Of a stretch of DNA of 64,000 nucleotides, positions 3,238 to 59,939 are shown piece after piece. Under the pieces are notes generated by a model, which was given only the letters and a program-made list of their open reading frames with translations, did not search any database and was not told the origin of the DNA. A program made the translations under genes and the position numbers. Within the stretch, counting starts at the first letter, position 1. Each line of letters begins with the position of its first letter. The DNA is from Pestalotiopsis fici W106-1 (taxonomy: Eukaryota; Ascomycota; Sordariomycetes; Amphisphaeriales; Sporocadaceae): NCBI RefSeq assembly GCF_000516985.1, contig NW_006917092.1, positions 4,903,924 through 4,967,923 of the forward strand, written 5' to 3'.

Positions 3238-3321
3238 ACGTGTCGCACACTGCACTAGCTGAACAAAATGTGAAGCTCCACACTAGGAACTCGCCTAATA
3301 GTGGTTATGGATACGTCAACA
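3238..3321 (+). mobile_element. MITE-like short repeat, copy 1
   Basis: About 85 bp containing CTAGCTGAACAAAATGTGAA and AGCTCCACACTAGGAACT, also present at 7924..8009 and 14590..14665. The 3' end (AGTGGTTATGGATACGTCAA) is an imperfect inverted repeat of the better preserved left end of copy 3 (GTTGACGCACCAAACCACT). It is non-coding. Confidence 0.7.
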
Positions 3322-4773: not shown

Positions 4774-5341
4774 TCAAGGGCAGGAGGACTCGTTATGGGT
4801 TTGCGTTGCGTTTCCGTGGGATAAAATACATTTTCCCGCCAAGAGTAAGATCTCAGCCTTCGTGATGCAACGGTCGCTTTGTAGTTGCTTGTGCTCGAAG
4901 CCTTCATGAGTAAGGATATGCTCTGGGATCAACTCTAGCAACCACTTAATAAGATCGTTTATCCTATTACGATAATTTTTCTCGGCTTGATTATGCAAGT
5001 GACGATCTCTGCGCTCCTTTCTTGTTGATGATAGACCACGATATGCGTTCTTTGAAACGCGAGATGCGCTGCGAAGGTTTCTCGGCACATCAGCTTTAGA
5101 CCTTCTCCTCGTTCCTGGGAGGCCGGACAAATGTGAAATCTCTGTTGGTTCAGCTATAAGCAAAGGAGTCAGTTATGCTGGTGTCATCTCCAGTTTTGGA
5201 TGACATACTGTTGTGTTCCAAATGGCCTTCCAGCTTGTCATTCGGCTGATGCGTCGTAGTGCACTCAGATTGGACGACATGTGTATGCTGAGAGGCCGGA
5301 GCTTCTGACAGAGGAGCGATTGCCAGTGGTGAAATCGGCAT
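4774..5341 (-). CDS. Small bHLH transcription factor, SREBP-like basic region
   Basis: Minus strand, exons 5341..5209 and 5153..4774, joined by a 55-nt GTATGT...TTATAG intron; 170 aa. ATG at 5341. Residues about 89-108 form a basic region with the pattern HxxxExxYRxR (H98, E102, Y105, R106, R108). The tyrosine is typical of SREBP-type and many fungal bHLH factors. Helix 1 follows (INDLIKWLLELIPEHI), then a loop of roughly 18 residues and helix 2 (ITKAEILLLAGKCILSH). No other domain is seen. The protein is short for the class and lacks a clear leucine zipper. It lies 3 kb left of the RiPP locus, so a local regulatory role is possible but purely positional. The bHLH call is firm; its target is unknown. 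Confidence 0.75.
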
Positions 5342-7308: not shown

Positions 7309-7835
7309 GATGAGAGTTGATATGGACCAAAGCTCAAGAGGTGAACGGACAGAAAATGTTGAGATCTGTAGTGGTTGTAATCTTGATGGAACAGTTTGAT
7401 CACTGATGAATATATACCACAATGCTATATGAATGTTGCTCGTCTATTCTAGGCAATATTCAGTTGATCTCGGAGCTCATACTATGTTACGGGACACTCT
7501 GTGAAGAATACTGTGAATAAAAAAACATAGAGTACTGTAGCAGTTTTATGATATGATGGTAGGTTGTAGTTGCACGGACCTAGCATGTTAGGTGCTAGGC
7601 ACCACCCTAGGTACTAGTACCTAATTTCCCCCGCAGCTGCCACAGCTTTCCGCCCTCTGTAGTTCATCACTTTTTGCTACACTTGCCACCCATAGATTGA
7701 TGATCATCAGAGCCTGATAATGCATAGTCTCGTGGCCGTAGCTAGATGACAATCATCTTCCACCATAAACCTTCTTCTTCGTCGTTTTCCGTGAAGTACC
7801 GGTACTAAACAGCAAGGCTCTGGCCTTACATAGCA

Positions 7836-8225
7836 AAAATTGTACTGGAACTTTCGGTTCAAGCATTTATGATCTGACGGTCGGTTGCAGGACGCATGGA
7901 TCTAGCAAGCATTATACCGGAATAACGCACCAAACCACTGCACTAGCTGAACAAAATGTGAAGCTCCACACTAGGAACTAGCCTGATAGTGGTTATGGAT
8001 ACATCAACACGGAATTATCGGTTCGAGCAGTTATGATCTGACGGTGGATTGCAGCTGCATAGGCTACCACTGCACCGGAACTGTTGGTTCCAGTAGTTTC
8101 ATAACATAACGGTAGATTGCAGCTGCATAGACTTAGTAGCCACTACAAGGGAACTGTGAGTCCGGCGTTTATGATATGATTGTAGATCGCAGGATGCTGC
8201 ATAACGGCACGGTAGGAAACTAATG
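7836..8225 (+). repeat. Tandem array A of a ~70-bp repeat
   Basis: About four diverged units with hallmarks (a/t)GCA(t)TTATGATCTGACGG, GGATTGCAGCTGCATA and CACTGCACCGGAACTGTTGG. An isolated older copy lies near 7536-7600. A MITE-like element (7924..8009) is inserted inside the first unit. The last unit ends in TAACGGCACGG, as does the last unit of array C. The array ends about 235 bp before the ATG of the first UstYa gene, on the same strand. Confidence 0.8.
7924..8009 (+). mobile_element. MITE-like short repeat, copy 2, nested in array A
   Basis: An 86-bp copy of the element at 3238 inserted into a repeat unit. The unit sequence CGGAAT is present on both sides (7918..7923 and 8010..8015), consistent with a 6-bp target duplication. 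Its ends carry AACGCACCAAACCACT and AGTGGTTATGGATACATCAA. Confidence 0.75.
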
Positions 8226-8457: not shown

Positions 8458-9455
8458 ATGTTTGATACGGATCATCATTTGCCTTTGTTAGAGCATGATG
8501 AACACTCAAATGGCGATTTCCATACATCTAACCATGACAAGATACCATACAAGATATCAAAAACACGAACCACCACCAAGCCAACACTCCATCTAGCACT
8601 GATTTTGCCCTGGATTCTGTTCTTTCTTACTCTCATCATTCTCTTATTCCAATGGTTCCAATACCAACCAGCCTCTCCTCTTCTGTATAGTAAGTTAACT
8701 TTACGTTCCCAAAGGATGTCTCATGAGTTGACCATCAAGGCCCTGCATATGATTCTTTGGAATATGAAATACGAAGATTTCGCCTGGGACTTCATAATGA
8801 TACAACTGAATATCAGGGAGACCCATCTCCAGAGCTCGATGAGACGTGGGAATCTTTATATAGGAGTATGCCATTTGCCCCCAGTCGAATTTCTGGCGTC
8901 TAATCTTGACATTTAGTGGGAATCAGTGCCATTCCACTCGAAATGGCCAAGAAACTGCCCAATCGCACGGCCATGATACCGCATGATGAAGAAAAACGTT
9001 ACATTATGCAACTCGACGTTTTTCATCAACTCCATTGTTTGGTAAGTTTGGCAAGCCGACCTATATTTATTTCATTCGAAATGATCATTTAATTGATGTT
9101 GTGGTATTAGAATGCGATTCGAAAAGCGCTTCATCCAGATTACTATACCGTTTCCTCCCAGCCAGATCCAAATGACGATGGTGGCGTCCTCGAGCCTCAT
9201 CACATTGATCACTGTGTTGACACCATCCGGCAATCTCTTATGTGCAATGCTGATATCAGCCCTTTGACCTGGATGTGGGATGATGAGAGGGCGAAAATCC
9301 TTGCGAAAGGCACCATAGTCCACACTTGCCGACGGTTCGACAAGATCCAGGAATGGGCTTCTCGATATAATTATGGCAAAATGATGGACTCCACTCAGAA
9401 GGCAGTGAATGACCCTTTAGACCCCGAGACTTGGACAGAAGGCTTTTCCGGTTAG
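8458..9455 (+). CDS. UstYa-family (DUF3328) membrane oxidase, RiPP locus
   Basis: Four exons: 8458..8689, 8740..8865, 8917..9041, 9111..9455; 275 aa. Introns are 50, 51 and 69 nt with canonical ends. A cytosolic N-terminus is followed by one membrane helix (about residues 44-67). After it comes the UstYa body: EYQGDPSPELDETW, then twin motifs HQLHC (156-160) and HIDHC (192-196), the putative metal-binding residues of this family. In known dikaritin pathways (ustiloxin, phomopsin, asperipin, victorin) UstYa-type proteins catalyse oxidative cyclisation of the ribosomal core peptide at the secretory membrane. Both motifs are intact and no internal stop is seen, so it appears functional. The array A repeats lie just upstream. 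The substrate proposed here is the repeat precursor at 18611. Confidence 0.88.
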
Positions 9456-10044
9456 GGTGGACTAGAAAGGAAATATTCCGTATCAGCAAACGATGGTAGC
9501 AGGTAGTGTTTTCAACATAGACCAGCAATCACAAGCGCGCGGGTTTGATTCAATTAGAACTTGACGAATACTCGCACGTTGCCTTAAAATTTGATAATCA
9601 TCGAAGCTACTAATACTGTAAATTGTTTAATCGAAATGGATATGTTGAAGAGCCTGGCTAGGTTAACGTTTGAATATTTATATTTACTCAATATCTTAGA
9701 AAATGCTATCATACGCCAAATTCTTTGGGAGGATTCAACTAAACTATCCCGTGTATGATATCATTGTTTAGTTCTGTAGCTTCCAGTATTATATATGATT
9801 AAAGCGGTGTTCTTGTTACGAACGCAAAGTTGACGAGTTTATACAAACGTTGATTTCCAAACAAAATCATTTCCCAATCCATGACAACGTTGAGCACGAA
9901 TTGAGGAAATGTTTCGTTGTCGTCATTTAGCTATAGTAAATCTGACTAGGACAGAATACCACGTCGACCGCAGGTATAATTGCAACACCTTTAAACAATA
10001 CCATTGTGGCCATTATATGCTCACTGCTGCAACCCATGTCGACA
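9456..10044. other. Intergenic between convergent UstYa-type genes
   Basis: AT-rich spacer between the 3' ends of the genes at 8458 and 10716; no gene or repeat seen. Confidence 0.5.
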
Positions 10045-10716
10045 TCAACAAGACTGTGTATATATCTCGCCTCGAACCGCGACTTCCCAGAGTGCTTTAG
10101 GTCCCTTGCCCTGCATTCCCAATATCATCTGAGCGCAGTGGCTTTGATGATGTAGGCCCATGGCATTGTAGGCGACCGGAATACCGTCCTTGTCATCGTT
10201 GTTCCGTAGCCAAAGAAGCAGGCAGTGCGTAACGTGATGGAGGCGGGTCGTATAGTAAGGAGTCCCAAAGGGGAGTTCGGTTAGGTTGGGGCCCAGTCCA
10301 TCGTCCAAATCAGCCCCTGCGGTTGCATAGAAACCCGTCCCTGGCATCGAAATGAACTCGGCCTCATAACTCCGGGAGCATGCCTTTGGGAGCCAGAGCC
10401 CGCTGAGGTAGTCAAACTCGCAGCCCATAGCCAGAGCTTCTTCGCGAGATTTGCCGCAGTGATGTTCGACCTTGTTCACCTCGGCCGAGTCATGCGGAAG
10501 TGCAGAGCAGACTCCTGAAGCTGGTGCACTATAGTACATGACGATTACTCCGAGCATGAATGAGAAGGCGAGTATGAGTCCGATGAAAATGTACTTGAAA
10601 GGCCTGACCCAAGGAGTGGATGCGCGGATTGGAACGGGAGGGCCGTACTCAGATTGTTCCGAATCTGTTGTAGATAAAGGTTCATATTTCTTGGTAACAG
10701 ATGTTCGAGGATACAT
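10045..10716 (-). CDS. UstYa-like twin-HxxHC membrane protein (CG.S..EA...GC.FD subfamily)
   Basis: Single exon on the minus strand, ATG at 10716 (CAT 10714..10716), 223 aa. A polar N-terminus is followed by one membrane helix (about residues 41-62). A conserved-looking block then reads CGKSREEALAMGCEFD...WLPKAC. Two HxxHC motifs follow: HVTHC (161-165) and HQSHC (190-194). The twin motif and topology match UstYa/DUF3328, but the YxGxPSPELD...W block of classical members is missing. A related fungal subfamily with CGxSxxEAxxxGCxFD is known to me only as uncharacterised small membrane proteins. Array B lies about 325 bp upstream in the same relative orientation as arrays A and C. A second, mechanistically different oxidase of the pathway is the likely role; this is inference. 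Confidence 0.75.
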   Translation of the reverse strand: MYPRTSVTKKYEPLSTTDSEQSEYGPPVPIRASTPWVRPFKYIFIGLILAFSFMLGVIVMYYSAPASGVCSALPHDSAEVNKVEHHCGKSREEALAMGCEFDYLSGLWLPKACSRSYEAEFISMPGTGFYATAGADLDDGLGPNLTELPFGTPYYTTRLHHVTHCLLLWLRNNDDKDGIPVAYNAMGLHHQSHCAQMILGMQGKGPKALWEVAVRGEIYTQSC

Positions 10717-11040: not shown

Positions 11041-11613
11041 CAGCTATGATCCACTGTCAAATCATAATTGCCTGGACTTACAGTTCCCTTGTCGTGGTTG
11101 CTAAATCTAGCAGCTGCAATCCACCGTCAGATCATAAATGCTCGAACCGATAATTCCGGTGCAGTTTTGCTAGATCCATGCGTCCTGTAATCGACCGTCA
11201 GATCATAATTGCTCGAACCAACAATTCCGGTGCAGTTTTGCTAAATCCATGCATCCTGTAATCGACCGCTGCAATCGACCGTCAGATCATAAATGCTCGG
11301 ACCATCAATTCCGGTGCAGTGGTTGCTGGGTCTATGCAGCTGCAATCCACCGTTATGTTGTTAAACTGCTCAAACCAACAGTTCTAGTGCAGTTCTTGCT
11401 AGGTCCGTGCGATTTGTAATCCATCGTCATATCATCAACTTGCTCGAACCAAGAGTCCCTTGTAGTGGCTGCTAGGCCTATGCAACTGCAATACACTTGT
11501 CATATCATTAAGATTACTCGAACCAATCATTCCCTTGTAGTGGTTGCTAGGTCTATGCAGCTGCAATCCACCGTCATATCATGAGACTGCCTAAACCCAT
11601 AATGCTCGTGCCA
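11041..11613 (-). repeat. Tandem array B of the ~70-bp repeat (reverse orientation)
   Basis: About eight diverged units written in reverse complement of arrays A and C (CCGTCAGATCATAA, TGCTCGAACCAACAATTCC, GTGCAGTTTTGCTA and so on). Spacing is roughly 68-87 bp; one unit contains a short internal duplication near 11270. It occupies the divergent promoter region between the minus-strand gene starting at 10716 and the plus-strand gene starting at 11881. Its orientation fits the 10716 gene. Confidence 0.8.
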
Positions 11614-11880: not shown

Positions 11881-12865
11881 ATGCGTTCTTGGAACTTTTT
11901 TGAGAAAATTAGAAATCCCACGTTTGGTGCGGCGAAGACGTCAAAAAATGAGGACGAAAGTGAGTCACTTATCGAAAGCTCTCATAATGGGAGGGCTCCT
12001 TCCGGAACTAAAATAACGTTGATTGTTTCAATTTGTGTCATTAACGTTTTGATACTGTTTACTTCACTCTACCATTTTCATCTTGCAAGCAATCTTTGCC
12101 AAAGTGGAACGAGGCCGCTCCCCGGGTATCAAAATAATGACCTCAACACACTTTGGAAACAGTCCTCCAGCTACTGTAAGTCCACACCGGAGCCTACGCA
12201 TGCAACTCAGCTGACAACAGAATGCTTGGACAGCGCCCATACTGGACAAATTGGACCTGGGCATGGACCGCGTAATGTTTGAAGGGGCACTCCAAGACAA
12301 CACATCTATATGGCGCCAGACACCTTCACCTGAAGTGGATGCCGCTTGGGACTACATTACAACGGAGGGCATGGAAGCCGTTACAGCGCCAGCTGAAGAC
12401 GTGTTGCGCTCTGGAAAAAATGTCTCAATGAGTGTCAAAGTACCTACATCCTGGGGCCTCGGGGATGATGCATACCTGGCACAGATAGAGGTGTTTCATC
12501 AAATACACTGTCTGAACCAGCTGCGGAAGGAGGTTTATGCGGAGTACTATTTTACTTCTCCGGCCAACGACCTTCGAATCGGGCACCGGAATCACTGCAT
12601 TCATATGATACTCCAGGTTCTGATGTGTAACGCAGACACCGGTCTCATATTCCATAACTGGGTTCACAATAGTGACCTCCCAGCCCCCCAAACCAGAGCG
12701 TTCGCAGATTTCAACACAATCAAGAAGTGCAAGAACTTTGACAATATTCTCGACTGGGCTCGAGAGAAGGGGGTCAAAAATGTAAAAGATAAAATGATCC
12801 ATGATCTCACATATCCGCCAGGGGCTCCATTTTTAGCTGGAGATGGTTATATCATATCGCAATGA
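11881..12865 (+). CDS. UstYa-family (DUF3328) membrane oxidase, RiPP locus
   Basis: Two exons, 11881..12175 and 12234..12865; 308 aa. The 58-nt intron uses the downstream acceptor GACAG at 12233. The nearer CAG at 12220 would create an immediate stop, and the chosen site restores the family block SSSYSPILDKL. One membrane helix spans about residues 44-66. The UstYa body contains PSPEVDAAW, HQIHC (187-191) and HRNHC (216-220), all intact. The role is expected to be oxidative ring formation on a precursor peptide, as in ustiloxin-type pathways. It is the second classical UstYa paralogue here, and diverges from the first outside the motifs, which suggests they act at different positions rather than being recent duplicates. 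Confidence 0.87.
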
Positions 12866-13166: not shown

Positions 13167-14463
13167 ATGCTCTCGCAGTCCGTATCTATAACACCCGTGG
13201 AATATTCGGAGCACTGTCCGTTTCCTTACAATAATTTCATATACATGATTCAGCTTTCCTCACCTATGGTATCATCGACATTCAGTGCCAGGAGTACACG
13301 TCCTGGAACTGCGGCGCCTCTAAACTCTAAGACAACAGTCTTCCGCCTCAGTAACCCATATGCGAATGATTTAAACAATGCAAATCGGGTAGAGAATGAA
13401 GTGGCTGCGCAATACCTCTACCGCCAACAACTCAGTGCAAGTCACCCAGAATTGGCGTCCTTGGTACCTACCATATATGCTCGGGAGCCAAGTCGATACC
13501 CAGAGATATCCGACGAGACGGGTTTCGGATGGACGATATGTGAACATATGCCAGGTACCAATCTTGATGCTCAGTTTGTCAAGATGGATCTTCCGAAGAA
13601 GTTGGAGGTGGTCAAGCAGATTGCAGGAATATTCGCAGCCTTCCAGAAAATTATTGTCCCGGAAGAGTTAAGAGGTCACTTCGGCGGTTTGACTTTCGAT
13701 GACTCGGGCCAAGTAGTCCGTGGGCAGATGTCCATTTGTCCCCCTGGGCCGTGGGAGGACTACACAGATCTGTGGGTTGCACGCCTACGCTGGCAACTGC
13801 ACAATGCCGACCAGAGCCCTGCGCTGAAGGGTTGGCAGGAGTGCGGTCTTCGTGATCGTATTGATAAGCTGTTGAATGGGAATGGGATCGCTAAGTGGAT
13901 GGAAAGGATAGACGTCACGCAGACCACACTGGCTCATGGTGACTTCAGTAAGTTGACAGATATGATCCATACTTCGAGTATCTTGGCTGATGATTATCAA
14001 AGCAATGAACAACATTCTATTTGACGACAGAAATCAACGCGTGACGGCCTTGCTGTACTTTGACTTTTCTTGTGTTACTCACCCTTCCCAGGACTTTTTC
14101 ACTGGTCTTTGGGATATTGGTGATGGGATGCGCCAAGATGACAGCAGGCTGCGTACTGCTATTCTGACAGGCGAATTTGACGATGCAGCCGAGGATTTTT
14201 CTCCCGATGCTAAGATCGATTGGGAAGTTTCCAAAGCTTGGGATAGTACGTTAGCTGTGCAAGGTGTCATTCGACCGTCTCTGATACTTGGAATTGATAA
14301 GTTGGAGACTCTTTGGGCATTGGAAGACGCAATCTGTCCTTCTAATCTCAGCCATGAATTCAAGATAGAGAGAACCAAGCGCAAGTTTCCAGGAAAGCTG
14401 GGGGAGATTATCAAGGCGGCTACAGATAAGCTGATTGCCACACTGAACGAGCTAGAGGCATAA
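13167..14463 (+). CDS. Aminoglycoside-phosphotransferase-like (APH/kinase-fold) protein
   Basis: Exons 13167..13947 and 14003..14463 (55-nt GTAAGT...CAAAG intron, in phase), 413 aa from the ATG at 13167. N-terminal lobe residues include VFRLSNPYANDLNNANRVENE. The hinge reads CEHMPGTNLDAQF, the catalytic loop AHGDF, and the metal-binding segment YFDFS, the layout of fungal APH-type proteins. Its substrate is unknown; related fungal proteins are common near secondary-metabolite genes and few are characterised. The start is uncertain: a homologous-looking upstream exon (13041..13124) contains a stop, so the protein begins at 13167 and lacks about 28 residues, or the gene is inactive. It sits between UstYa and peptidase genes of the RiPP locus. 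Kinase fold is confident, activity less so. Confidence 0.65.
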
Positions 14464-14996
14464 TCAGTAAAGACTGACAATCTACGACTAACGCCTTTTC
14501 CGGATCTTCTAATTATGTAACCTAGGGTGCGTTGCTAGTCTTGTGACAGGGACTGGTTCCTATCATGTCGCTTATTTGAAGCATCGGAAGTTGACGCACC
14601 AAACCACTGCGCTAGCTGAACAAAATTTGAAGCTCCACACTAGGAACTAGCCTAATAGTGGTTATATGGTACGGCGCAATAGAAGTACTATACATCATAG
14701 CCTACATTGAGTGACGGGGATGGCCATAACGCGTGTACTCTACATCCCGGCTCATATTGAGTGGATCGTTCCAACTGAGTCCATGGCAAGCCCTATGGAG
14801 ACTTAGTCCACCCTTGCCCGCGGTTGGAAAGTTATCATCACTGTAATGTTACCAGATGTCTCCCCCATCATATTGTTCATAAAAACATGTTAGCGAGCAG
14901 TGGTCAGGATGAAGGAAAGAAGACGAGAAAATTTCCCAGCGGCCCCCTCTGCCTTGACCTTATTGACTTGCACATCTCACGGTCTACCAATAAGCA
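14464..14996. other. Intergenic; contains MITE copy 3
   Basis: Promoter region of the S53 peptidase. The only recognisable feature is the short mobile element at 14590..14665. No ~70-bp array is present here, unlike before other cluster genes. Confidence 0.5.
14590..14665 (+). mobile_element. MITE-like short repeat, copy 3 (3' truncated)
   Basis: Third copy of the short element. It preserves the left end best (GTTGACGCACCAAACCACT) but loses the right end after AGTGGTTATATGG. Confidence 0.7.
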
Positions 14997-17141
14997 ATGA
15001 TGGCGAGCAATATGTTGGGAAAACTAGTTTGCATTCTCACGCTAGTCACGCTGGCGATGTCTATCACTTTCAGAAGTTTGGATTCTGGAATCGATGTTAC
15101 GTTGTTAACAGCACCTCCCGCCGACCACATGATCACGCTCTCCATTGGACTGACGATGAACAACATGGATGAACTGGACGAAAGACTCAAGGCGGTCTCG
15201 ACTCCAGGAAGTCCGCTCTATGGCAAATACCTTGACAAGCACGACATCGAATCTCTTTTCTTTCCATCAACTGATGCATACAAAAATGTCACTAGCTGGC
15301 GTAAGTAATATGCTTGTTTTTGATTTTCTTTCTTTAGTTGTTGCATTTCTTTTTTCTTACAGTTCGAAACATGCGACTCGGGGAGTCAAGAGTACATCGT
15401 TAGGTGTCTGATTTCCATTAAAGCAAAAGTTCAGCCTCCGATAATTAGTCAATAACATCCTGAAAGTAAAATGCTAATACTGAGATGTATAGTGCGAAGT
15501 AATGGTGTTGAGAAAATCTCACAGCAGGGATCGAGCATTAACTTTGCGACTACAGTCGCAAACGCGAACAAGTTACTCAACACCGAATTCGCCTACTATG
15601 ATATCGAAGGTGTGAAAAAACTTCGAACGAGGCAATATGATGTGCCTGATGAGGTGGCAGATCATATCAACCTAATTCACCCCACGACTTATTTTGGCAA
15701 ATCGAGATCCATGATGAATACAAGGGAACTGGTGCAGGTGTCTCAACGAGAGACGACACCGTCTTACTCTAATACGACAACCAATTGCTCCACCCTACTG
15801 CAACCATATTGTTTCCGCGACGCTTATGGCGTGGAGGACTATACTCCAGACGAAAACAGTGGCAGTCGTGTTGCATTTGGTAGTTTCCTAAACAATTCCG
15901 CACGTTTAGAGGATTTCCATTTATACCAAAATGCATACGGCATCCCAGAGTCAAATTTCTCTACGGAGATAATCAACGGAGGGTTGGATCACCAAGACAT
16001 CAACGGTAAAATCGGGGAAGCCAACCTCGACTCTCAACTACAGAGCGCAATGACGTATCCTCTCCCACAGATACAATATATCACCGGAGGAAAGCCACCA
16101 TTTGTTCCAAGTGTTATTACTCCTGACGAGGAAAGTAATACAAACGAGCCTTGGCTGGATTTTTACGAATTCTTAATAAACAAGACCAACGACCAGCTAC
16201 CACAGGTTATCTCGAACTCCTATGGCGAGGATGAACAGACAGTGCCACCCGAGTACGCTCGGCGGGTGTGTAACTTAATAGGTGTATTGGGGTTGCGTGG
16301 GATTTCTGTTCTCCAGTCCTCTGGGGATGGCGGAGTTGGAGTTCCGTGTATCTCGAATGATGGAAAGAACCACACTGAATTTTCACCGCAATTCCCCGCA
16401 TCCTGCCCCTGTAGGTAGAAGCTGAATCTCAAAGTCGCGGTGGCTTTTGTGTTCTTTGCTCTTGGTAATCCTTACTAACAGATTCTGATAGATGTCACAT
16501 CTGTCGGCGGTACTCAGTCCTGGGCTCCGGAGATTGGATGGTCCGGAAGCAGCGGCGGTTTCAGTAATTATTTTGCCCAACCTTGGTACCAAACGGGTGC
16601 TGTCAATACTTATTTGGACTCTGGCATCAACCTTGAGGCGAAGGAATATTACGAAGCCGGCGCATACGCAAATTTCTCGGGAAGGGCTTTCCCTGACATC
16701 TCGGCGCACAGCTATCACCCCAAGTACGTCCAATGATACCTTGCTTAGTCGAGTAAAGAAGAAACCTTGAAGCTGACATCACACAGCTATGCATTCTATA
16801 TAGCCGATGCCGCAGAAGAAGGAGCTGGAACATCGGCTGCCGCTCCCGTTGCAGCAGGAGTGATCGCTTTGCTGAACGACGCTAGACTCCGCGCTGGAAA
16901 ACCAACCATGGGGTTTCTTAACCCATTTCTTTACAGTCTTGAGATGGGCCCTCTCATTGACGTTACCTCAGGAACGTCAACAGGCTGTACTGGGACTACA
17001 GCGAGAACAGGGAAAGAAATTCCAGGTGCTGGTGTCATACCCAACGCGACGTGGAATAGTACGATTGGTTGGGATCCTGTGACTGGACTGGGCTTGCCAT
17101 ACTTCAAGGAGATGGTCAAGGTCGCTATGATGATTGTTTAA
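14997..17141 (+). CDS. Secreted S53 (sedolisin / tripeptidyl-peptidase) protease
   Basis: Exons 14997..15300, 15493..16410, 16492..16723, 16787..17141; 602 aa. Introns of 192, 81 and 63 nt preserve frame. The long first intron is fixed by family text SWL|RSNGVEKISQQGS across the junction. There is a hydrophobic signal peptide (about residues 6-22), a pro-domain, then the sedolisin catalytic residues: E277 and D281 in GEANLDSQ, oxyanion D380 in SSGDGG, and S501 in GAGTSAAAP. A C-terminal calcium-site region ends in GWDPVTGLG. Family enzymes remove tripeptides from N-termini or act as endopeptidases in acidic compartments. In this context it may trim Kex2-released repeats. Known dikaritin loci usually carry S41-type peptidases, so S53 here is unusual. 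Confidence 0.88.
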
Positions 17142-17720: not shown

Positions 17721-18266
17721 CGTTATGTTAGTGGATTGCAAGACGCATGGATCTAGCAATCCTTACACCGGAACTATCGGTTCGAGCATTTATGATCTGA
17801 CGATGGATTGCAGCTGCATACGCTTAGCAACCACTGCACCAGAACTGTTGTTTCAAGCATTTATGATCTGACGATGGATTGCAGCTGCATACGCCTAGCA
17901 ACCACTGCACCGGTTGCTGGTTCAAGCATTTATGATCTGACAATGGATTGCAGCTGCATAGGGTTAGCAGCCACTGCACCGGAACTGTTGGTTCGATCAT
18001 TTATGATCTGACGATGGATTGCAGCTGCATAGGCCTAGCAACCACTGCACTGGTTGTTGGTTCGAGCATTTATGATCTGACGATGGATTGCAGCTGCATA
18101 GGGTTAGTGACCCCTGCACCGGAACTGTTGGTTCAAGTAGTTTCATAACATAACGGTGGATTGCAGGACGTATGAATCTAGCAAGCACTGTACTGGAATT
18201 ATCGGTTCGAGTAGTTTTATGATATGATTGCGGATTGCAGGACGTACTGTAACGGCACGGGACGGA
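17721..18266 (+). repeat. Tandem array C of the ~70-bp repeat
   Basis: About eight units of alternating 69 and 71 bp, the best preserved of the three arrays. Core blocks are GCATTTATGATCTGACGA, TGGATTGCAGCTGCATA, TAGCAACCACTGCACCGG and ACTGTTGGTTC. It ends with TAACGGCACGG like array A. It stops about 345 bp before the ATG of the repeat-peptide precursor. Reading frames of 60-67 codons run through it by chance. Confidence 0.85.
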
Positions 18267-18488: not shown

Positions 18489-18498
18489 TTATAAATAG
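18489..18498 (+). promoter_or_regulatory. TATA-like element of the precursor gene
   Basis: TTATAAATAG lies about 115 bp upstream of the precursor ATG at 18611, the only good TATA-type match in this promoter. A pyrimidine- and A-rich leader follows. Confidence 0.5.
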
Positions 18499-18610: not shown

Positions 18611-18943
18611 ATGAAGCTCAATCTTTTAAACCTGGCCTTCGCTGTCCTGGCTGCGCCAGCCGCTACAATGCCTGTAGAGCATAGTACGAAGCCAGGCGAA
18701 GTACTTGCCGATAAATTTTTGCTTGGCAGCAGCTATAAACGTGAAGAGCCTTCAAGTAAGGTGGACGTAAAGAGGAACAACGAGGTCGATGCCGATGAGT
18801 ACGATCTCCGTTCTGCATGGGCCAAGAGGAACAACGAGGTCGACGCCGACGAGTACGATCTCCGTTCTGCATGGGCCAAGAGAAACAACGAGGTCGACGC
18901 CGACGAGTACGATCTGCGTTCCGCATGGGCCAAGAAGGATTAG
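18611..18943 (+). CDS. Candidate RiPP precursor, Kex2-processed, three 18-residue repeats
   Basis: Single exon, 110 aa, ATG at 18611. Residues 1-19 form a signal peptide (hydrophobic LLNLAFAVLAAPAA). A short leader follows with a first KR at 43-44 (SSYKREEP), then VDVKR just before the repeats. Next come three units of NNEVDADEYDLRSAWAKR; the last ends AKK followed by D and stop. KR pairs are Kex2 sites, so cleavage would release 16-residue pieces after basic residues are trimmed. This is the plan of ustiloxin-, asperipin- and epichloecyclin-type precursors (signal peptide plus Kex2-separated repeats holding the core). Each unit has one Tyr and one Trp, candidate sites for UstYa-type oxidation; core borders are inferred, not known. 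Two UstYa genes, an UstYa-like gene and an S53 peptidase lie within 10 kb. No product of this sequence is known to me. Confidence 0.82.
   Translation: MKLNLLNLAFAVLAAPAATMPVEHSTKPGEVLADKFLLGSSYKREEPSSKVDVKRNNEVDADEYDLRSAWAKRNNEVDADEYDLRSAWAKRNNEVDADEYDLRSAWAKKD
18776..18937 (+). repeat. Three in-frame 54-bp repeats encoding the peptide units
   Basis: Units 18776..18829, 18830..18883 and 18884..18937. Within the first 17 residues every base difference between units is synonymous (GAT/GAC, CTC/CTG, TCT/TCC). The only amino-acid change is the final R to K in unit 3. Confidence 0.9.
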
Positions 18944-19790: not shown

Positions 19791-20039
19791 CTATATATTA
19801 ACGGTATGTGCACGTCGAATAGTCACTCCGAGTAGACAATAGGCCTCATCTTTTTCGTTCGTCATGTGGCGGCTATGAGCCCAAGCCAGGCGCTCATGGG
19901 GGGTAAATCGACTAAGAGCGGTTCCGCGCAGTGCATTTCTGTGAATCTTAGAGATGCTATAGATCCCACTTTTCAGCGATAATTTGTCACCCAAAAATCC
20001 GCCATCAACTAAGAAAAACTTAACTAAAGCTAGTGCCAA
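19791..20039 (-). pseudogene. HET-domain (heterokaryon incompatibility) gene relic
   Basis: A minus-strand frame resembles the part after the core HET domain of HET-E/NLR-like proteins: GFLGDKLSLKSGIYSISKIH, ALRGTALSRFTPHERLAWA and KDEAYCLLGV match the pattern where fungal proteins read ER(L/M)SWA...DxAYxLLGI. The homology breaks off after LLGV. Upstream on that strand (20040-20580) the sequence becomes AT-rich and TA-rich with many stops, as expected if it was silenced by repeat-induced point mutation. No intact gene remains. Confidence 0.65.
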
Positions 20040-22343
20040 AAGCGTTTGGAGCGTCCAGCCGCGGGTAAACCATCGGCTTTTCCTGAAAAATAGCTTTTAC
20101 GACGCTCTTAACGTTTGTCCGTCTTCGCAGTTATTTTTTAAGATATCGGGTAAATAAGCATAGCATTAAGCAGCATTTTGGTATTAGCGGAATATTGAAT
20201 TAATCGCTTTGGAAAGCTCCGTATTATTTAATTTGTCGATATAGCACGTATCGACCCAGAAATATCGTAAACCATCCGAAGCAGTCTGCTAATAATAAAA
20301 TTAAAGCTTTTTATATCCTTTCTTATCTTAGCCGGCGTAATATTGGATATTATGGAAAGTAACCTCCTAATTATCGTCTCCCTATATATGCGAAAAGATA
20401 GTGTATTACGGAATATTCTCAATTAAATCCTTTGTTAAACCGAAGCTCCCATCCGTTTTAACTCTTAGGAGACGCATAGCCGGCTGTTTTTATAGAAAAA
20501 TAAAGTAGATGATTTGCATACTAATAGCAAAATAATTCTATAAATATAGTCCCGAGATACCTTTTGCGAGTAGGGCGGGTTCAAGCACGATCAAACCTGA
20601 GCTCCAACCGAAAAAAGACCTAAGCTCTCCCCTTTCCTACAGTCTTCATTGATCAACTCCGCCTTGTTAAGCTAGGGCCAGATGTTGCTATTATCCAAGT
20701 TGAAGTTGCGCAAACCTGTGGATTGGCCGGTGCCGAGTGGAGGTGCTCGTCATGCGAATTCAGTCTTCTGCGATTTGCAATAAGGCCTTACCAGGCTTTG
20801 CGAGAGCTCTGGGAACTGTAATGAATGTATAACTCGATTCAAATAGTAGATTGAAAATGAACAAAGATGTAGATAGCCTGCGTATATACAGTTGTCATGG
20901 CCAGCTTCTGCGGCCATGTACGGAGCGCCTGCGGTCAATTGAGGCGTTCAAATACTTTTCAGAGAATTTGCAGACTTTTCCCCAGAAGACGAGTAGATAT
21001 ACATGTTTAAAAGACTCACAGGCTCAGTACTGGAGTAGATAGCTATGTACTACTAGGTATTCATCTCATCCACGACTCAACGTGGGGACGAAACAGTGAA
21101 ACAATCAGGATCTCCCGGTCCACTTATTCAAGCTTCAATTATACATGGCCAATCCAGGGCTCAGCCACACCAAGGATTCGGTGCGACGGTGATCTCGCTG
21201 CGCCACGCCCAAACCTCATGAGCTCCAACAAAAGCCGAATACTTCTTGGTTCCCATTTTCTGCGTCTTGAAAAGTTCTGAGGGGCATTACAAGATGGAAC
21301 GGGCTTGACGCCACACCCGAGTTGATCATCCAAAAACTCCCATATTCAGTCCGGTGAATCATACACCATGGACGCCTAGTTGGGAGGCTCTTCATCGGAT
21401 GTATGCAATGAAAGACCAAGGCGAAAGTGCCATGCATCAAAATGCAGGCAGCGACGAATTCCTCCAAGCTATTGGGCTAATATTCGTGAACACTCGAGTT
21501 GTTGAATGCCAACACCTTTTGTGCGACAGTGTCTTTCTAGCGGATTTTCGGCCAAATGTTTCTTTTCTTCTTCCTTTATTTTCTTAATTTAAAAAAAAAA
21601 AAAAGAACCATAGACCCTTTGTTAGCCTTTGAAACGAATAGCTATCTGGCGATTAAGAATAACTCAAATCGGGACCGATGGGATCGCACAGAGGGAGGGA
21701 CTACGAGCGGTGCGGGAAGCTTGGCATGGATATCACCGCCTGCTTGCTTGTCATACTTTAGGTATTCTTAGCACACCAGCCCCCCCGCCACGTGCCTATT
21801 CGCTAGCGGTTTGAAGGGCTCCAACGGCCCGCCTCCGCCCTTTACATAGGGCTAAATCATACATGTTAAGAGTCCGCGCCGCAACGCTGCACATTTCCAT
21901 CGTCACAATTGACTCGACACAGCCAGTCACGATACTGGCAGGATCTCAATGGGACCAGGGGAGCTTCTATTCTGTACGCACAAGATGCCATGGCCAGGCA
22001 GCAGGATTCGGGGCTCTGCCTCTCTGCCTGCCTGCCTGCACTTCAATATCTGCGCCGCAATGACATTTTTGTCGGTCATACGTCAATTGGTCTACTGCTT
22101 CAGGCTGAGAAACATTACAAGATGTCTTGCCTATAAGTTTATCTCACTGCCGCCTCAAGATCCTTTGAGCGACTCGAGTCTTTCGAATCTCAATCGCTCG
22201 CCCAAACCATTCCATCCAGTGCAAGTAAACTATACAACTTGCACAGCTTATTGCCCAAGTGTAACTTGCTACTTCAAAAAGAAACAATAAATCCTTCATT
22301 ATATAGACATCTTCAAGGTCTACGACAACTTGGATTGATCAAG
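20040..22343. other. Degenerate, partly AT-rich intergenic region
   Basis: 20040-20580 is strongly AT/TA-rich (likely RIP-affected); 20600-22340 is mixed sequence with no identifiable gene. A short CTGCCTGCCTGC microsatellite lies near 22025. Confidence 0.45.
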
Positions 22344-25614: not shown

Positions 25615-27360
25615 TCATGATGTAGATTCCTGCCATTGCGCGGCTGTGCTTGTTCCCATTTCTTCATTACTGTTTCGAATCTGTTCAAACACCATGCGCG
25701 TCAACGGTGATGGAGTCCTGACCAGCGGTGTACTAAAGTCCAATGGTGGCCAAGACATCTGCTGGTTTTGCTGGTCCAGCGAGTGGTAATTGGGCGTAGT
25801 TGAGCCAGAAGGTCTCAAGATATTAGTATCTGCCAAGATCTCCTCTAGCTCTGCCCACGCTGAAGGATGTAGCAGAGTCCCGGAAAAGGGACTTCGGTTG
25901 GGGTCAATCTCAGTCTCTTCCGGCTGTTCTTCAATGCGCCCGCTGCTCCCCAGATCCACCACTGGATTTGGCGCAATGGACGCCATCCTGAGGTATAGCG
26001 ATGCAACTAGGGATTTGTTACCACCCCGAGAGGATGAAAGTATCTTTTGAAGACCCAGCAATACCTCTTCGGCCTGGTCGGCTGGATTGACCGAGTTGTT
26101 GCTCTTCACAGCATCAATGACTGCAGTGGCAATGTCATAGGTTTTGAATTCCATAGTTGGGCCATGAGCCTCAATGGCAGTCTTTGGCAGATGCGACATG
26201 AAGTTCAAGAATTCCTTGGCTATGCGGATGGGACTGCTTGCCATGGTGGCGACCCCAAACCTCACAGCTGCCCGCCACAGTACTGCACGCATCCATTGAC
26301 GTGTAACGAATATGTCTGCCTTTTGGACATCATTACTGGAATCGTAATCGATGGCATTATCCTGGAGATGGTCTTGTAACAACCCCAAGCAGCCTCTTGC
26401 GGTTGTTGTCAGGTTGGACAAGTCAGAGTCGGAATTTTGTAGGATATCAAAGATGCCAGACTGATCAAACATCCAAAACAAATTGACTAGCTTCAAGAAA
26501 GCGGGCAGAACATGGGCCTGGTCATCTCCGACCGGAGTAGGTAGTATGATGGCGGGTTTGAGGATGACCGGGAGTTTGTGAAGCATTGCGACGCCTCTCT
26601 CCGTAACAAAGAGCAGCCACAAGACACGGCGCCGCATCTGCTGCTCCGTCTCGGGCAATCCGTCGTAGGAAGACTCTCGCTCCAATCGCATCATTTGGGA
26701 AATGGTTATTGCTTGCCTCAAGTATAAAAGACTTTTCCCGCCACCCGGCGTCTGGTTTTCATGATATATGTGCAAGAAAAAAGCGACGCGCAGGACATCG
26801 AGGCTCATTTGGTTATCATGATCTTCCAAGCTTGTGCGTGGCACCTCGTCTGGTGAAAGCGTTTCCAGGCGAAGTTGTGCTATAGTAGCTAGGCGAATAG
26901 TGGTGGCCAAGAGATTGGACAAAGGTGTATTGGACGCAAGAGCATGCATCAGCTCATCAACATTGACTATCGGCCATATTGGATACAACCTCTGTCGATA
27001 AATCTCGAGAGCATGGACGAGACTTGTGGTCTGCTGCCGAGGTGGGTCAATCGGCCTAGCAGCGTCAAAGTGAAAGATTCCTGGCACTGGGGCATCGACG
27101 GGCAGCGAGTGATGGTTGTCGTCATTGAAGCCATCCAAGGGCGCCGTCTGAGCTGCAGATATCTTTTGTATCGTCTTGGCGCGCAGGGTCCTCGGCCCTC
27201 TTGTCGCCTGGAGGCGCTTAAAGGTACATGCTATTCCACTCGCAACGCAACCGCGACATGGCGACGTCTCGGAGCACTTGACCTTTCTGATTTTGCAGGC
27301 GTCGCATGCACGCTTCACGAGGTTCGTCCTTGGTGCGGATTTTGCCTTGTTGTTTGGCAT
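25615..27360 (-). CDS. Zn2Cys6 transcription factor
   Basis: Single exon, ATG at 27360, 581 aa. The binuclear zinc cluster spans C19, C22, C29, C35, C38 and C45 (CX2CX6CX5CX2CX6C), followed by a basic RGPRTLRAKT linker of the kind found in sugar- and carbon-source regulators. The middle region (about 120-400) is helical with the fungal-specific regulator pattern (LVHALEIYRQRLYPIWPIVN, RRRVLWLLFVTERGVAML). The C-terminus is Ser/Thr/Pro-rich with a short acidic stretch. It lies beside and on the same strand as the aldo-keto reductase gene, but the 0.8-kb gap gives no evidence of co-regulation. Target genes are unknown. Confidence 0.88.
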   Translation of the reverse strand: MPNNKAKSAPRTNLVKRACDACKIRKVKCSETSPCRGCVASGIACTFKRLQATRGPRTLRAKTIQKISAAQTAPLDGFNDDNHHSLPVDAPVPGIFHFDAARPIDPPRQQTTSLVHALEIYRQRLYPIWPIVNVDELMHALASNTPLSNLLATTIRLATIAQLRLETLSPDEVPRTSLEDHDNQMSLDVLRVAFFLHIYHENQTPGGGKSLLYLRQAITISQMMRLERESSYDGLPETEQQMRRRVLWLLFVTERGVAMLHKLPVILKPAIILPTPVGDDQAHVLPAFLKLVNLFWMFDQSGIFDILQNSDSDLSNLTTTARGCLGLLQDHLQDNAIDYDSSNDVQKADIFVTRQWMRAVLWRAAVRFGVATMASSPIRIAKEFLNFMSHLPKTAIEAHGPTMEFKTYDIATAVIDAVKSNNSVNPADQAEEVLLGLQKILSSSRGGNKSLVASLYLRMASIAPNPVVDLGSSGRIEEQPEETEIDPNRSPFSGTLLHPSAWAELEEILADTNILRPSGSTTPNYHSLDQQNQQMSWPPLDFSTPLVRTPSPLTRMVFEQIRNSNEEMGTSTAAQWQESTS

Positions 27361-29801
27361 GGCGTCGTTGTAGTCGCAAGGTACAAGACTGTGGATGTGG
27401 ATGTGGAGTAGGAGATCCAAGTCCTGGACTGTCGCTGAAACCTTACGATGGAATCTCTGGCTTTGAGATTTAGGTCCGACAGATTGGGTCGTGGCGAAGC
27501 GACAGGATACGCATCATGGCGACACCCCGGTGCAGTTTCCCTGTACTGTACAGGGCGGGCGCCTACGAGGTAACTGAAGATAATTGTAAAATAATGTAGT
27601 TGATTCAAAGTCGGTTACATGGTCGACGCACTTGAATCGCGCTGCAGAGCTACTCGCAGACCCGATCACTTGGCTCTTCAGAACTCTCGGGATGAGGAGT
27701 CTTGAAGATAAAAGAAGGATAATTGCACAGTAGCACTGGAAGCTCAAGATGTTTGGCAAGTGATGGGAGCAACGGTCTTGGGGTTGATTCGTGACCACTT
27801 ACAGGACACCCAGGCCCCCCGCTAAAATTGCACAATACAGCCCATGACAGTGGCCTCGAACACCATGGACCCACATGGGCGATCGCGTCATCCTCGGCTC
27901 CCCGCAATATTCTTTTGCTGTCTCTCTCTACGGGAGTTTTGAATGTGTTTTATTTCAGCGACTCCAATGAATCCATGGTACTGAATGCAGGGTGTCCAAC
28001 GGTCAAGTCACGTCACGTTTTGAAATGCACATCGCGGACTTAGTATGCCTCTTCCACCAGAGGACTACTAGGTACAGTGGCACAGGCCATTTCCCCAACA
28101 CTTGCATACATACATAATCTGCAATCCTTCATCTCGGCACGGGTCAATCCTTCGAGAAATTCGCAGGGATCCGAAGCTCAATTATTTTGCTCAAATGTCT
28201 TGATAAGATCGTTAAACAAGAACTCGTAAAACATTATAGAGAGTCGCAACAGACTCGCCATCATTATGTTCAATTTGCACATATCGCGGTCGTCCCGTGC
28301 CTATTGCCCCGCTATTTCAGATCAAGAGTTATAACGAGCACATTGTGGGTACGGCTCCGGTTCTCAAATGAGGAGAAAGAATACTGTGTATACAAGTCAG
28401 GAATGTTTCAATGTCTCATTTTCTCCTACCCGTCCATCGAATTCCAATATGAAATCACACCGCAACCAAAATAATGATAAGCTAAGGGAGAGATACAGAA
28501 AGGAACACAAATCATTCATCATCCTCGCAACCATTGTTCATTGTTAGACTCGGCATGTGGTGAATCAAGTTGACGTTGCTTGCAACTATTGTCTACTTAC
28601 CTAGCATCACTTTCCAATTTATACCTCCTCTGCTTCTATTGGGTTTTACGCCTGCAAGTCAAGAAAGTCTTTACAATTTTTCGTCATGTTCCAAAGGGAT
28701 ACCGATGACACGCTAGTGACTGTTTCGCTGTGGAATGTGCTGTCGCTAACAAGTTTTGTCTCGAAAACCCACGAGTACCAGGTAATACATATTGGTGCAA
28801 ATCGGTGATAGTTTCCCGGCAAGGGGATCATTGATGTCCAAGAGTGAATTGGTTCACAGTCAAGAGACAGCAGATCTCTTCTCGGCCGTTGCAGTGTTTA
28901 TATGGGTACCTAATAGCGCAACGATTGAGCGGCTGCTCGTAACACATTTCTACGGATTTGTCGGAGTGGGCGGGCAAAAAGTGGCACTAAATTCTACATA
29001 GTAGAAGTTGGGGAACGTTGGATATACACCTAACCTAGCCAACAAGGACAGCGTCCAGCCAAGAGTTGGTTGATTTATAGTTACCTAGACCTTGCCTGCA
29101 TGGTTCTATGGGATCTGTCAAACACGTGAAATGATAGACGAGGCAAAAGGTGGATTGTTCACTTTTAAGCTTACATTAGATATGATTGATCTCGGATGTT
29201 TAATTGCAGACTCCAGGACTCTGTTCGTTTCATAGTGTGGCGCAATTACCAGAGCTGGCCGTCTAAGCGTGCCACAGTGGGCTATAGTTCATGGCTGCAA
29301 ACGTGCTCTTCCAAAGCTGTTTGCAGACCCAAATTGGCTCGAAAACTAGCCAATCATGCCCGGGGACAAGACCCCAATCCAGTAAGGCTATACCTCTAAG
29401 TACCCGTGGGCCCCCTCTGAGGCGCTCATGGCAGCGGCTGAAAACAGACAGATTCACATTGGTCTTTCAGCTGCATCTGCGCTACTGATTCCAGGGCCAC
29501 TACTTTCATTCACTACCTGCTAGTTTGGACGCCATGCTCGTTGCTCAATGATTTCAACTTCGTATCAGGTATCTCTACACGGGACGACTCCTTTTTTTCT
29601 ATCTTGCCTTGTTCGTCAATCGGCATTCCTGGGCTGAGACCTGCCCAGGTAGGTGCCCACGGTCATGTTGGGGTAGAGTAGATCGTATAATTAGACTGCA
29701 TTCCCAAGAACTGAGTATGGTGCCTCGAGATTCATACCTCCGAATCTCCTCTTGCGGTTATTCTCTCTTTGTATGCATTTTGTGATTTCACGTTTATTGC
29801 A
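27361..29801. other. Intergenic, 2.4 kb without assigned gene
   Basis: Long non-coding spacer, the divergent promoter space of the regulator and the glycosyltransferase-like gene. Only short frames without domains were seen. A small unrecognised gene cannot be excluded. Confidence 0.4.
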
Positions 29802-58477: not shown

Positions 58478-59939
58478 CTACACTACCATGGCATGAGCAG
58501 GTGCAGGCCTATGATGGTTATTCTTTGGCAACCTACCTGTAACAGCTGATGATGATGCGAGCCCGCCAGCCAACACGTTGAATTCGGCCTCAGCCTTTTT
58601 GACATCCTCGTCCAGGTCGTGGAGCCAAATCCAGAGATACCTCTGCGCCTGGTTCTCCACGATCTTGTCCATGTCGGAACCAATCCCCGGGGCCTTGAAG
58701 GCGCACAGGTCGCCCGCCTCCTGGCTCGTCTGCACGATGCGCTGGGCTCGCGGCCGCCGGATGGCGTCAAAGACGGAGAAGGCCGTCTCAATCTGCGTCG
58801 CGTCCCTCACCAGCCCCAGCAGCCGTGACATGACCAGGGCATCTTCAATGCATTGCCCGGCGCCCGCGGCTTGATGCGGCAGAGTTGCATGGGCAGAGTC
58901 GCCCAGCAGACAGATGCGCTTGTTAAAGTACGTGGGCGTGACGAGATGGTGGAAGAGACCCCATCGTAGCGGTTTCGCCCACTGTTTCGCGAATGTGGTT
59001 AGCAAGTACTTCCACATTTGGGCTGAAGTCAGTGACCAGCATCTCACTCACATCTAGCAGCTTTACCAGCCGTTTATCCACCCCGAGATCTGCTATGTCG
59101 CGTGTCATCTCCTCACGAGACACAGGCTTCGTCCACTCGGGATGCGTCCACGGCTTGTCGTCAAGGCGGAAACAAACCATGTTGCTCTTGGTTCCGCTCG
59201 AGATGGGAAAGGTCGTGATGATGCACTCGTCGCCCATGAACATTTTGGCGTCGCCGGCAATCTCGTTGCCGTCCACATCCCGCCCGAGCACGCGCATAGC
59301 GTCCTCCATCGGGATCATGGCCCTGTAGACGTACTTGCCAGTATACCGCGCCCGAACGTACTCGGGCCACCGATCACCCAGCACCACACCACGCGAGACG
59401 CCCTTGACGCCATCGGCGCCGATGGCGCAGGATGCCGTGGCTATCTCACCGTCCTCAAATTCGATTACGGCGCCCCTTGCATCATCCTGCGAGAGGGACT
59501 TGACTCGCTTGCTAAAACGGACGCACTCCTCGGGGATATCCGCCGTCATGATATCGAGGAGGTCCTTCCTATGTGCACTCGTCCGCATGTAGCACGGTGC
59601 ACCATAGGACATGGGCCTAAGCCCCCGACCCTCACCGAGGCCCTCCTCGACCAACATCGCGTCCATCATGACATGATCTTTCCCCGGAGTCACGTTGCCA
59701 CTTGAAATGCCTTGGTAAAGCTCCGTGAAGCCCGGCTGGATAGCTTCCATGGCCCGGATAGCATTGGGCCCGAGCCCGACGCCAGCCCCAACAGCGCTGA
59801 AGCACTCGGCCGCCTCATAGAGCGTGAACGGGACGCCAGTTCGGAGTAGTCCGCCCGCAAGAGCTAATCCGCCGATGCCTGCGCCAATGATGGCGACACT
59901 GAATGGCCGCTCCGCCTCGGTGAGTTTCAGGGCAGGCAT
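58478..59939 (-). CDS. FAD-dependent monooxygenase, salicylate-hydroxylase type
   Basis: Minus strand, exons 59939..59052 and 58981..58478 (70-nt intron, phase 0); 463 aa. The FAD-binding GxGxxG lies at the N-terminus (AIIGAGIGGLALAGGLLR), the DG motif reads GADGVKG, and the second FAD motif is LLGDSAHATLPHQ with D324. This three-motif layout defines class A flavin monooxygenases (PHBH fold), which use NAD(P)H and O2 to hydroxylate aromatic substrates. Length and motif spacing match salicylate-hydroxylase-like fungal enzymes. The gene is 1 kb from a divergent ACMSD-type amidohydrolase, suggesting breakdown of an aromatic acid. The exact substrate is not visible. Confidence 0.87.

What the first reader, a model, noticed from the sequence alone, without database searches (positions are those of the whole stretch)
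18611..18943. New RiPP precursor with three Kex2-bounded repeats holding one Tyr and one Trp each
A 110-aa secreted protein ends in three copies of NNEVDADEYDLRSAWAKR. Signal peptide plus KR-bounded repeats beside UstYa-type genes is the defining layout of fungal dikaritin RiPPs. The repeat matches no core I know (ustiloxin, phomopsin, asperipin, victorin, epichloecyclins). A core around EYDLRSAW would allow a Tyr-Trp or Tyr-aliphatic cross-link.
Basis: partly seen in the sequence, partly recalled or inferred. Interest (0 to 1): 0.92.

Follow-up and report, generated by a model that had tools for sequence, protein, structure and literature searches.

The report
Fungal cyclic-peptide precursor gene cluster
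A mould gene encodes a secreted protein that would be cut into three copies of one short peptide, and it sits in a small gene cluster whose promoters share a repeat that searches found in no other part of that genome, so it probably makes a new member of a known class of ring-shaped fungal peptides.

Summary
18611-18943 encodes a 110-aa protein with a hydrophobic N-terminus and three 18-residue units; the third ends KKD, not KR. The one relative found, a two-repeat Seiridium unicorne protein, keeps ADEYDLRSAW exactly; all 4 codon differences before KR among the three copies are synonymous. So (DE)YDLRSAW is probably the selected peptide.

Context supports a dikaritin-type RiPP: two UstYa genes (intact by my models), a third membrane protein with paired His motifs, a kinase-like gene and a tripeptidyl-peptidase-like sedolisin lie within about 10 kb. 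New here: 19 copies of a ~71-bp repeat in three arrays, upstream of UstYaA, between the His-motif gene and UstYaB, and upstream of the precursor. All 12 matches to its 24-base core in the 51.7-Mb genome fall in these arrays, which ties precursor to UstYa genes better than proximity does.

Against: no row named Seiridium among listed UstYaA/UstYaB hits; no tyrosinase in the frames scanned; no product known. KEPs near UstYa genes are a known kind (1758 published). A Tyr-Trp link is untested; Tyr-Leu is at least as likely.

The parts
18611..18943 (+). RiPP precursor candidate: 110 aa, hydrophobic N-terminus, 3 x 18-residue units around (DE)YDLRSAW
18776..18937 (+). three 54-nt repeats; 4 codon differences in the 16 codons before KR, all synonymous
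17754..18240 (+). promoter repeat array 3 (7 units of about 71 bp), ending about 371 bp before the precursor ATG
11041..11611 (-). promoter repeat array 2 (8 units) between the divergent HxxHC membrane protein and UstYaB
7831..8192 (+). promoter repeat array 1 (4 units, plus a weak unit at 7539, E 0.0039), ending about 266 bp before the UstYaA ATG
8458..9455 (+). UstYaA, 4 exons by my model (8458-8689, 8740-8865, 8917-9041, 9111-9455), 275 aa, HQLHC and HIDHC motifs
   Evidence: PF11807 E 2.3e-55; model; relatives
10045..10716 (-). protein with one hydrophobic segment (by eye) and paired HxxHC motifs (HVTHC, HQSHC); no Pfam match; kinship to UstYa only suggested
11881..12865 (+). UstYaB, 2 exons by my model (11881-12175, 12234-12865), 308 aa, HQIHC and HRNHC motifs
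   Evidence: PF11807 E 1.5e-50
13167..14463 (+). APH-type phosphotransferase (13167-13947, 14003-14463); no promoter repeat; role unknown, may be a bystander
   Evidence: PF01636 E 3.5e-15; model
14997..17141 (+). sedolisin (S53), 602 aa, 4 exons by my model, tripeptidyl-peptidase-like; candidate trimming peptidase; no promoter repeat
   Evidence: PF09286 E 2.5e-39; TPP1 in PDB E 8.6e-52; model
4777..5172 (-). bHLH-domain frame left of the cluster; possible regulator; gene not modelled
   Evidence: PF00010 E 7.5e-9

Best explanation
18611-18943 is the precursor of a dikaritin-type RiPP. Inferred steps: the protein enters the secretory pathway; Kex2 cuts after each KR and Kex1-type trimming removes the basic residues, freeing NNEVDADEYDLRSAWA; the UstYa-family proteins (UstYaA, UstYaB, perhaps the third HxxHC protein) oxidise the peptide, most likely joining Tyr to the Leu two residues on, or else using Trp; the sedolisin trims the acidic N-terminal spacer. 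Two tripeptide cuts (NNE, VDA) would leave DEYDLRSAWA, and a cross-link would stop a third cut. A cluster-private promoter repeat switches precursor and oxidases on together. Shown: reading frame, repeats, core conservation in one relative, open neighbouring enzyme genes, shared repeats not found elsewhere in the genome. Inferred: every processing and cross-linking step, and the regulatory role of the repeats.
For: Repeats and frame. Core ADEYDLRSAW identical, 10 of 10, in the Seiridium relative against 18 of 44 identities over the N-terminal 44 residues. 4 of 4 codon differences before KR synonymous, when 20% (all changes) or 31% (transitions only) would be expected at random. Two UstYa genes with both HxxHC motifs; UstYaB exon 2 models well (pLDDT 87.8). 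About 0.75% of the genome lies within 6.8 kb of a UstYa locus, counting 25 loci (23 if matches are merged by eye). The 71-bp repeat lies upstream of UstYaA, the HxxHC protein, UstYaB and the precursor: 12 of 12 genome-wide matches to its core lie in these arrays, control 0. Two of 9 other UstYa loci examined also have a Kex2-repeat frame, one with the same D-x-D-E-Y lead-in.
Against: No row named Seiridium among the listed UstYaA hits (120 of 162) or UstYaB hits (38 of 38), and by eye no contig length is shared between the two lists, so neither the precursor with these enzymes nor the enzyme pair is seen linked elsewhere. No tyrosinase among 40 entries scanned with Pfam (a selection of frames, some overlapping, not all); the only methyltransferase match is of RNA type. 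Ustiloxin and phomopsin need a tyrosinase. The APH and sedolisin promoters lack the repeat. The repeat could be a local minisatellite without function. Gene conversion could explain part of the likeness of the three coding copies. No expression or product data.
Confidence: 0.7

Rival explanations
1. The precursor is a Kex2-processed repeat protein that releases a linear, unmodified secreted peptide (hormone, effector or surface peptide); the UstYa genes serve another product.
For: 6120 of 7878 surveyed KEPs have no UstYa gene among the 15 nearest genes (PMC7329392). Seiridium keeps the core although no row named Seiridium was listed for UstYaA or UstYaB. The nearest UstYa gene is three genes away.
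Against: The promoter repeat shared with both UstYa genes and not found in the rest of the genome. Linkage by chance is about 0.75%. The core holds a Tyr, as do 65.6% of repeats of UstYa-linked and 38.2% of unlinked KEPs.
Confidence: 0.22
2. It is an alpha-type mating pheromone precursor.
For: Same plan: hydrophobic N-terminus, Kex2-bounded repeats, acidic spacer after KR.
Against: Alpha pheromones of Sordariomycetes carry two conserved cysteines (PMC6339444 passage); this precursor has none. KEPs annotated as pheromones lie near UstYa genes in only 3 cases of the survey (PMC7329392 abstract).
Confidence: 0.03
3. About the promoter repeats only, not exclusive of the other readings: they are a neutral local minisatellite that spread inside the cluster and say nothing about co-regulation.
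For: Units are alike over their whole length, not at one short site, and array 2 is inverted relative to arrays 1 and 3. The promoters of the kinase-like gene and the sedolisin lack the unit.
Against: All three arrays end 266-371 bp before start codons and none lies in the 3'-3' gap 9455-10045. Self-comparison of nine other UstYa regions gives 0-7 repeat pairs each, against 45 in this cluster and 0 in the two other parts of the window.
Confidence: 0.4

Closest known systems
Ustiloxin and phomopsin clusters (dikaritins)
   Same: Kex2-bounded repeats after a signal peptide, linked UstYa genes, Tyr in the core, cluster-encoded peptidases (PMC7329392 sections, PMC9233826 passages)
   Different: Core YDLRSAW instead of YXIX; sedolisin-type peptidase; no tyrosinase seen; third HxxHC protein; promoter repeats
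Asperipin-2a cluster
   Same: A dikaritin described as having a single ustY-type gene and none of the usual extra enzymes (PMC12048977 passages)
   Different: Bicyclic core with linkages from internal tyrosines (PMC9233826 passage); here two UstYa genes plus a possible relative, and one Tyr with one Trp per unit
Victorin
   Same: Kex2-type multi-core precursor with aromatic-to-Leu closure (PMC9233826 passage)
   Different: Closure through Phe and later chlorination in victorin; here Tyr, Leu and Trp are the candidates and no closure is shown
Kex2-processed repeat proteins (KEPs) near DUF3328 genes, 1758 of 7878 in a survey of 1461 strains (PMC7329392)
   Same: This arrangement, on average 3.09 genes apart
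   Different: No paper of the library holds this core string; the survey's supplementary tables could not be read, so a listed homologue is possible
Seiridium unicorne 'putative RxLR effector protein' (P0002)
   Same: Same core ADEYDLRSAW twice, same pro-segment ending G-S-[GS]-Y-K-R
   Different: Two repeats, 80 aa, gene neighbours unknown

Membership tests
Kex2-processed repeat protein (KEP) | secretory signal peptide | tested here: inconclusive
   hydrophobic N-terminus read by eye; no predictor on hand
Kex2-processed repeat protein (KEP) | near-identical repeats bounded by Kex2 sites | tested here: met
   last copy ends KKD
Dikaritin RiPP | UstYa (DUF3328) gene linked to the precursor, the class-defining enzyme as reported in a passage of PMC12048977 | tested here: met
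   two PF11807 genes at 8458-9455 and 11881-12865, the nearer 5.7 kb from the precursor
Dikaritin RiPP | both HxxHC motifs in the UstYa proteins | tested here: met
Dikaritin RiPP | precursor and UstYa linkage conserved in a second species | tested here: inconclusive
   precursor found in Seiridium; no row so named for UstYaA (120 of 162 listed) or UstYaB; its contig could not be read
Dikaritin RiPP | core peptide oxidised or cyclised by UstYa | not testable with these tools
   needs LC-MS and gene deletion
Ustiloxin/phomopsin type | tyrosinase in the cluster | tested here: inconclusive
   none among the 40 entries scanned, but not every frame was scanned
Ustiloxin/phomopsin type | core of the form YXIX | tested here: not met
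   core reads YDLR; rule from PMC7329392 section 9
Alpha-type pheromone of Sordariomycetes | two conserved cysteines in the repeat | tested here: not met
   no cysteine in the precursor; rule from a passage of PMC6339444

The most novel reading that the evidence does not exclude
A RiPP cluster that carries its own private regulatory repeat: a ~71-bp unit, found in no other part of a 51.7-Mb genome, arrayed in the promoters of the precursor, both UstYa genes and a third, so far unnamed HxxHC oxidase-like protein, controlling a Tyr/Trp-containing macrocycle whose acidic spacer is removed in tripeptide steps by a cluster sedolisin until the cross-link stops it. A bHLH gene next door and CAGCTG boxes in the units (10 in 1420 bp, 0.54 expected from the rest of the window; weak evidence in repeated DNA) suggest the regulator.
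Probability: 0.25. Interest if true: 0.7.

Novelty: new member of a known kind. Interest (0 to 1): 0.48.

Why it matters
A passage of a 2022 review counts only five reported dikaritins although 22% of KEP genes have UstYa neighbours (PMC10512285). A core with one Tyr, one Leu and one Trp, identical in two genera, is a clean test of which bonds UstYa enzymes make. Promoter repeats confined to one cluster would offer a DNA-only way to decide which genes belong to it, a usual weak point of genome mining (my judgement).

Tried and rejected
Rejected: alpha pheromone (no cysteines). Rejected as cluster-specific: a 74-nt element at 3248, 7936 and 14605; it has 28 matches across the genome and is probably a dispersed repeat. 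Not supported: the idea that UstYa clusters of this genome generally carry such promoter repeats. Tandem repeats of period 20 or more were reported in 6 of the 20 fetched regions, at least two of them coding, and self-comparison gave 0-7 pairs per locus; I did not check each of these for position relative to genes. Inconclusive: profile comparison of the HxxHC membrane protein with UstYa (hhalign probability 19.6%, E 0.0012) aligns little beyond the two His motifs. Led nowhere: PDB sequence searches with UstYaA and with a UstYa profile; Foldseek with the UstYaB model (0 matches at E <= 0.001); NCBIfam; papers on Seiridium and RiPPs (1 paper, off topic by its listing). A strict KEP detector missed two KEP frames that a looser one found; the looser count is the one used. 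The absence of shared contig lengths between searches was judged by eye. One paper search was spoilt by a surname that begins with the search term. An earlier count said 8 other UstYa loci, where the right number is 9; entry 3 says 20 repeat copies, where 19 pass E < 1e-3.

Full report
1. The observation. The frame at 18611-18943 (+) encodes 110 aa in one exon. A hydrophobic N-terminus is followed by a pro-region, a short KR-bounded peptide, and three 18-residue units. The third unit ends KKD at the stop codon, so it is closed by the C-terminus and not by KR. A TATAAATAG box lies at 18490. The genome search found 1 match to the protein, the gene itself. The window lies in a 51.7-Mb, 20-contig genome; it is fungal by its introns and gene content. 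The only precursor relative comes from Seiridium, family Sporocadaceae, order Amphisphaeriales, so a related ascomycete is likely but not shown.

2. What is conserved. Among 263 candidates the protein search returned, at E <= 1, the query and one other, an 80-aa Seiridium unicorne protein with two repeats (E 4.1e-14; sequence). ADEYDLRSAW is identical in all copies of both species, while the preceding five residues read NNEVD here and DNSVN there. Over the first 44 residues 18 match. Within the gene, the three copies differ at 4 of the 16 codons before KR, all silently; random changes would be silent in 20% of cases, or 31% for transitions. Gene conversion among copies may contribute. The pro-segment ending L-[LI]-G-S-[GS]-Y-K-R is also shared. 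Selection therefore probably acts on a peptide around (DE)YDLRSAW.

3. The neighbourhood. My gene models with GT-AG introns give open proteins: UstYaA (275 aa) and UstYaB (308 aa), both PF11807 (E 2.3e-55 and 1.5e-50) and both with the paired HxxHC motifs. Exon 2 of UstYaB models confidently (pLDDT 87.8, pTM 0.80). No solved structure matched UstYaA or a UstYa profile by sequence or the UstYaB model by fold at E <= 0.001. A divergent protein at 10045-10716 has no Pfam match but has one hydrophobic segment (by eye) and two HxxHC motifs. Of its 4 other matches in the genome, 2 lie within about 1.5 kb of other UstYa matches. Its kinship to UstYa is only suggested. An APH-type kinase and a sedolisin related to tripeptidyl-peptidase 1 (PDB 3edy, E 8.6e-52) follow. 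To the right, scanned frames match MARVEL, aldo-keto reductase, a Zn2-Cys6 factor, an RNA-type methyltransferase, gamma-glutamyltranspeptidase, Tfb4, UNC45, asparaginase and others; a FAD-binding (FAD_binding_3) frame at 58926-59972 is 40 kb away. No tyrosinase was seen among the 40 entries scanned; not every frame was scanned.

4. The promoter repeats. A unit of about 71 bp occurs 19 times (profile E < 1e-3) in three arrays: 4 units upstream of UstYaA, 8 between the HxxHC protein and UstYaB, and 7 upstream of the precursor. The arrays end about 266 (UstYaA), 325 (HxxHC gene), 270 (UstYaB) and 371 bp (precursor) from the start codons. A 141-bp query finds 11 matches in the genome, all here (3 candidate places scored; such counts are lower bounds). 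A 24-base core pattern with up to 2 mismatches finds 12 matches in the whole genome, all here, and 0 for the reversed control. Self-comparison at E <= 1e-6 finds 45 repeat pairs in the 12-kb cluster, which include the coding repeats, against 0-7 in nine other UstYa regions and 0 within each of the two remaining parts of the window, 7 and 45 kb. Short tandem repeats do occur in 6 of the 20 other fetched regions. The kinase-like and sedolisin promoters lack the unit. CAGCTG, a possible bHLH site (recalled), occurs 10 times in 1420 bp of array (0.54 expected), but in repeated DNA such an excess proves little; a bHLH frame lies at 4777-5172. I read the arrays as the best evidence that precursor and UstYa genes form one unit; a neutral minisatellite remains possible.

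5. Other precursors in this genome. By eye, one search shows 23 UstYa loci, this one included. Of 9 others examined (20 regions of 10 kb), 2 hold a Kex2-repeat frame: one with GDEYHHYNN and NEYLNYA/D units (L021), one with YLVKYEGDEEAAKD (L027). The L021 frame has no Met before its repeats, so it needs an upstream exon; signal peptides were not established for either. The D-x-D-E-Y lead-in recurs in L021. A stricter detector had missed both.

6. Results against. Searches with UstYaA (162 hits, 120 listed) and UstYaB (38 hits, all listed) show no row named Seiridium and no contig of 792,253 bases, and by eye no contig length is shared between the two lists. So the linkage is not seen conserved, and the UstYa genes could serve another product. 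Nothing here shows expression or modification.

7. Mechanism. Kex2 cutting and UstYa oxidation are described for this kind of cluster. In ustiloxin and phomopsin the bond joins Tyr to the Ile two residues on; here that place is Leu. Victorin is described as closed between a C-terminal Phe and an internal Leu, so Trp-Leu is also possible. UstYa homologues also desaturate residues in phomopsin. Tripeptide trimming by the sedolisin fits the register NNE-VDA-DEY and the conserved Ala before DEY, but is inference.

8. Novelty. A 2020 survey lists 7878 KEPs, 1758 near UstYa genes, on average 3.09 genes apart. This is a new member of that kind with a core not found in print (string search, 0 papers; supplements not readable). 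The promoter repeat is the unusual part; one combined word search (37 papers, 20 listed, listing only) showed no obvious precedent, which is weak evidence.

9. Papers. PMC7329392: abstract, outline, sections 7 and 9, passages. PMC6339444, PMC12048977, PMC10512285, PMC9233826: passages only. The rest: listings.

Noticed in passing
L021 (own genome, C1), minus strand, frame beginning at 8870: A second Kex2-repeat frame about 1 kb from an array of UstYa matches, with GDEYHHYNN and VSNEYLNY(A/D) units; it lacks a Met before the repeats, so an upstream exon is needed.
   Followed up: partly
L027 (own genome, C10), plus strand, frame beginning at 3285: A third Kex2-repeat frame near UstYa matches, unit YLVKYEGDEEAAKD ending in KR.
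   Followed up: no
window 10045-10716 and L011-L014: A small family of proteins with paired HxxHC-like motifs and no Pfam match (only the window's was scanned); 2 of 4 other copies lie near UstYa matches. Possibly an undescribed branch of the UstYa group.
   Followed up: partly
window 3248-3321, 7936-8009, 14605-14678: A 74-nt dispersed element with 28 matches in the genome, probably a short mobile repeat.
   Followed up: partly
window 19791-20096: A short minus-strand frame that looks by eye like a piece of a HET-domain protein; no Pfam match.
   Followed up: no
window 25618-27513: A Zn2-Cys6 transcription factor 6.7 kb right of the precursor; CGG-CCG pairs are not enriched in the repeat arrays (1 against 4.5 expected).
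   Followed up: partly
window as G000:C2: The protein database lists the precursor on a contig of 6,593,212 bases, while the held contig C2 has 6,590,779, so two slightly different versions of the contig seem to exist.
   Followed up: no
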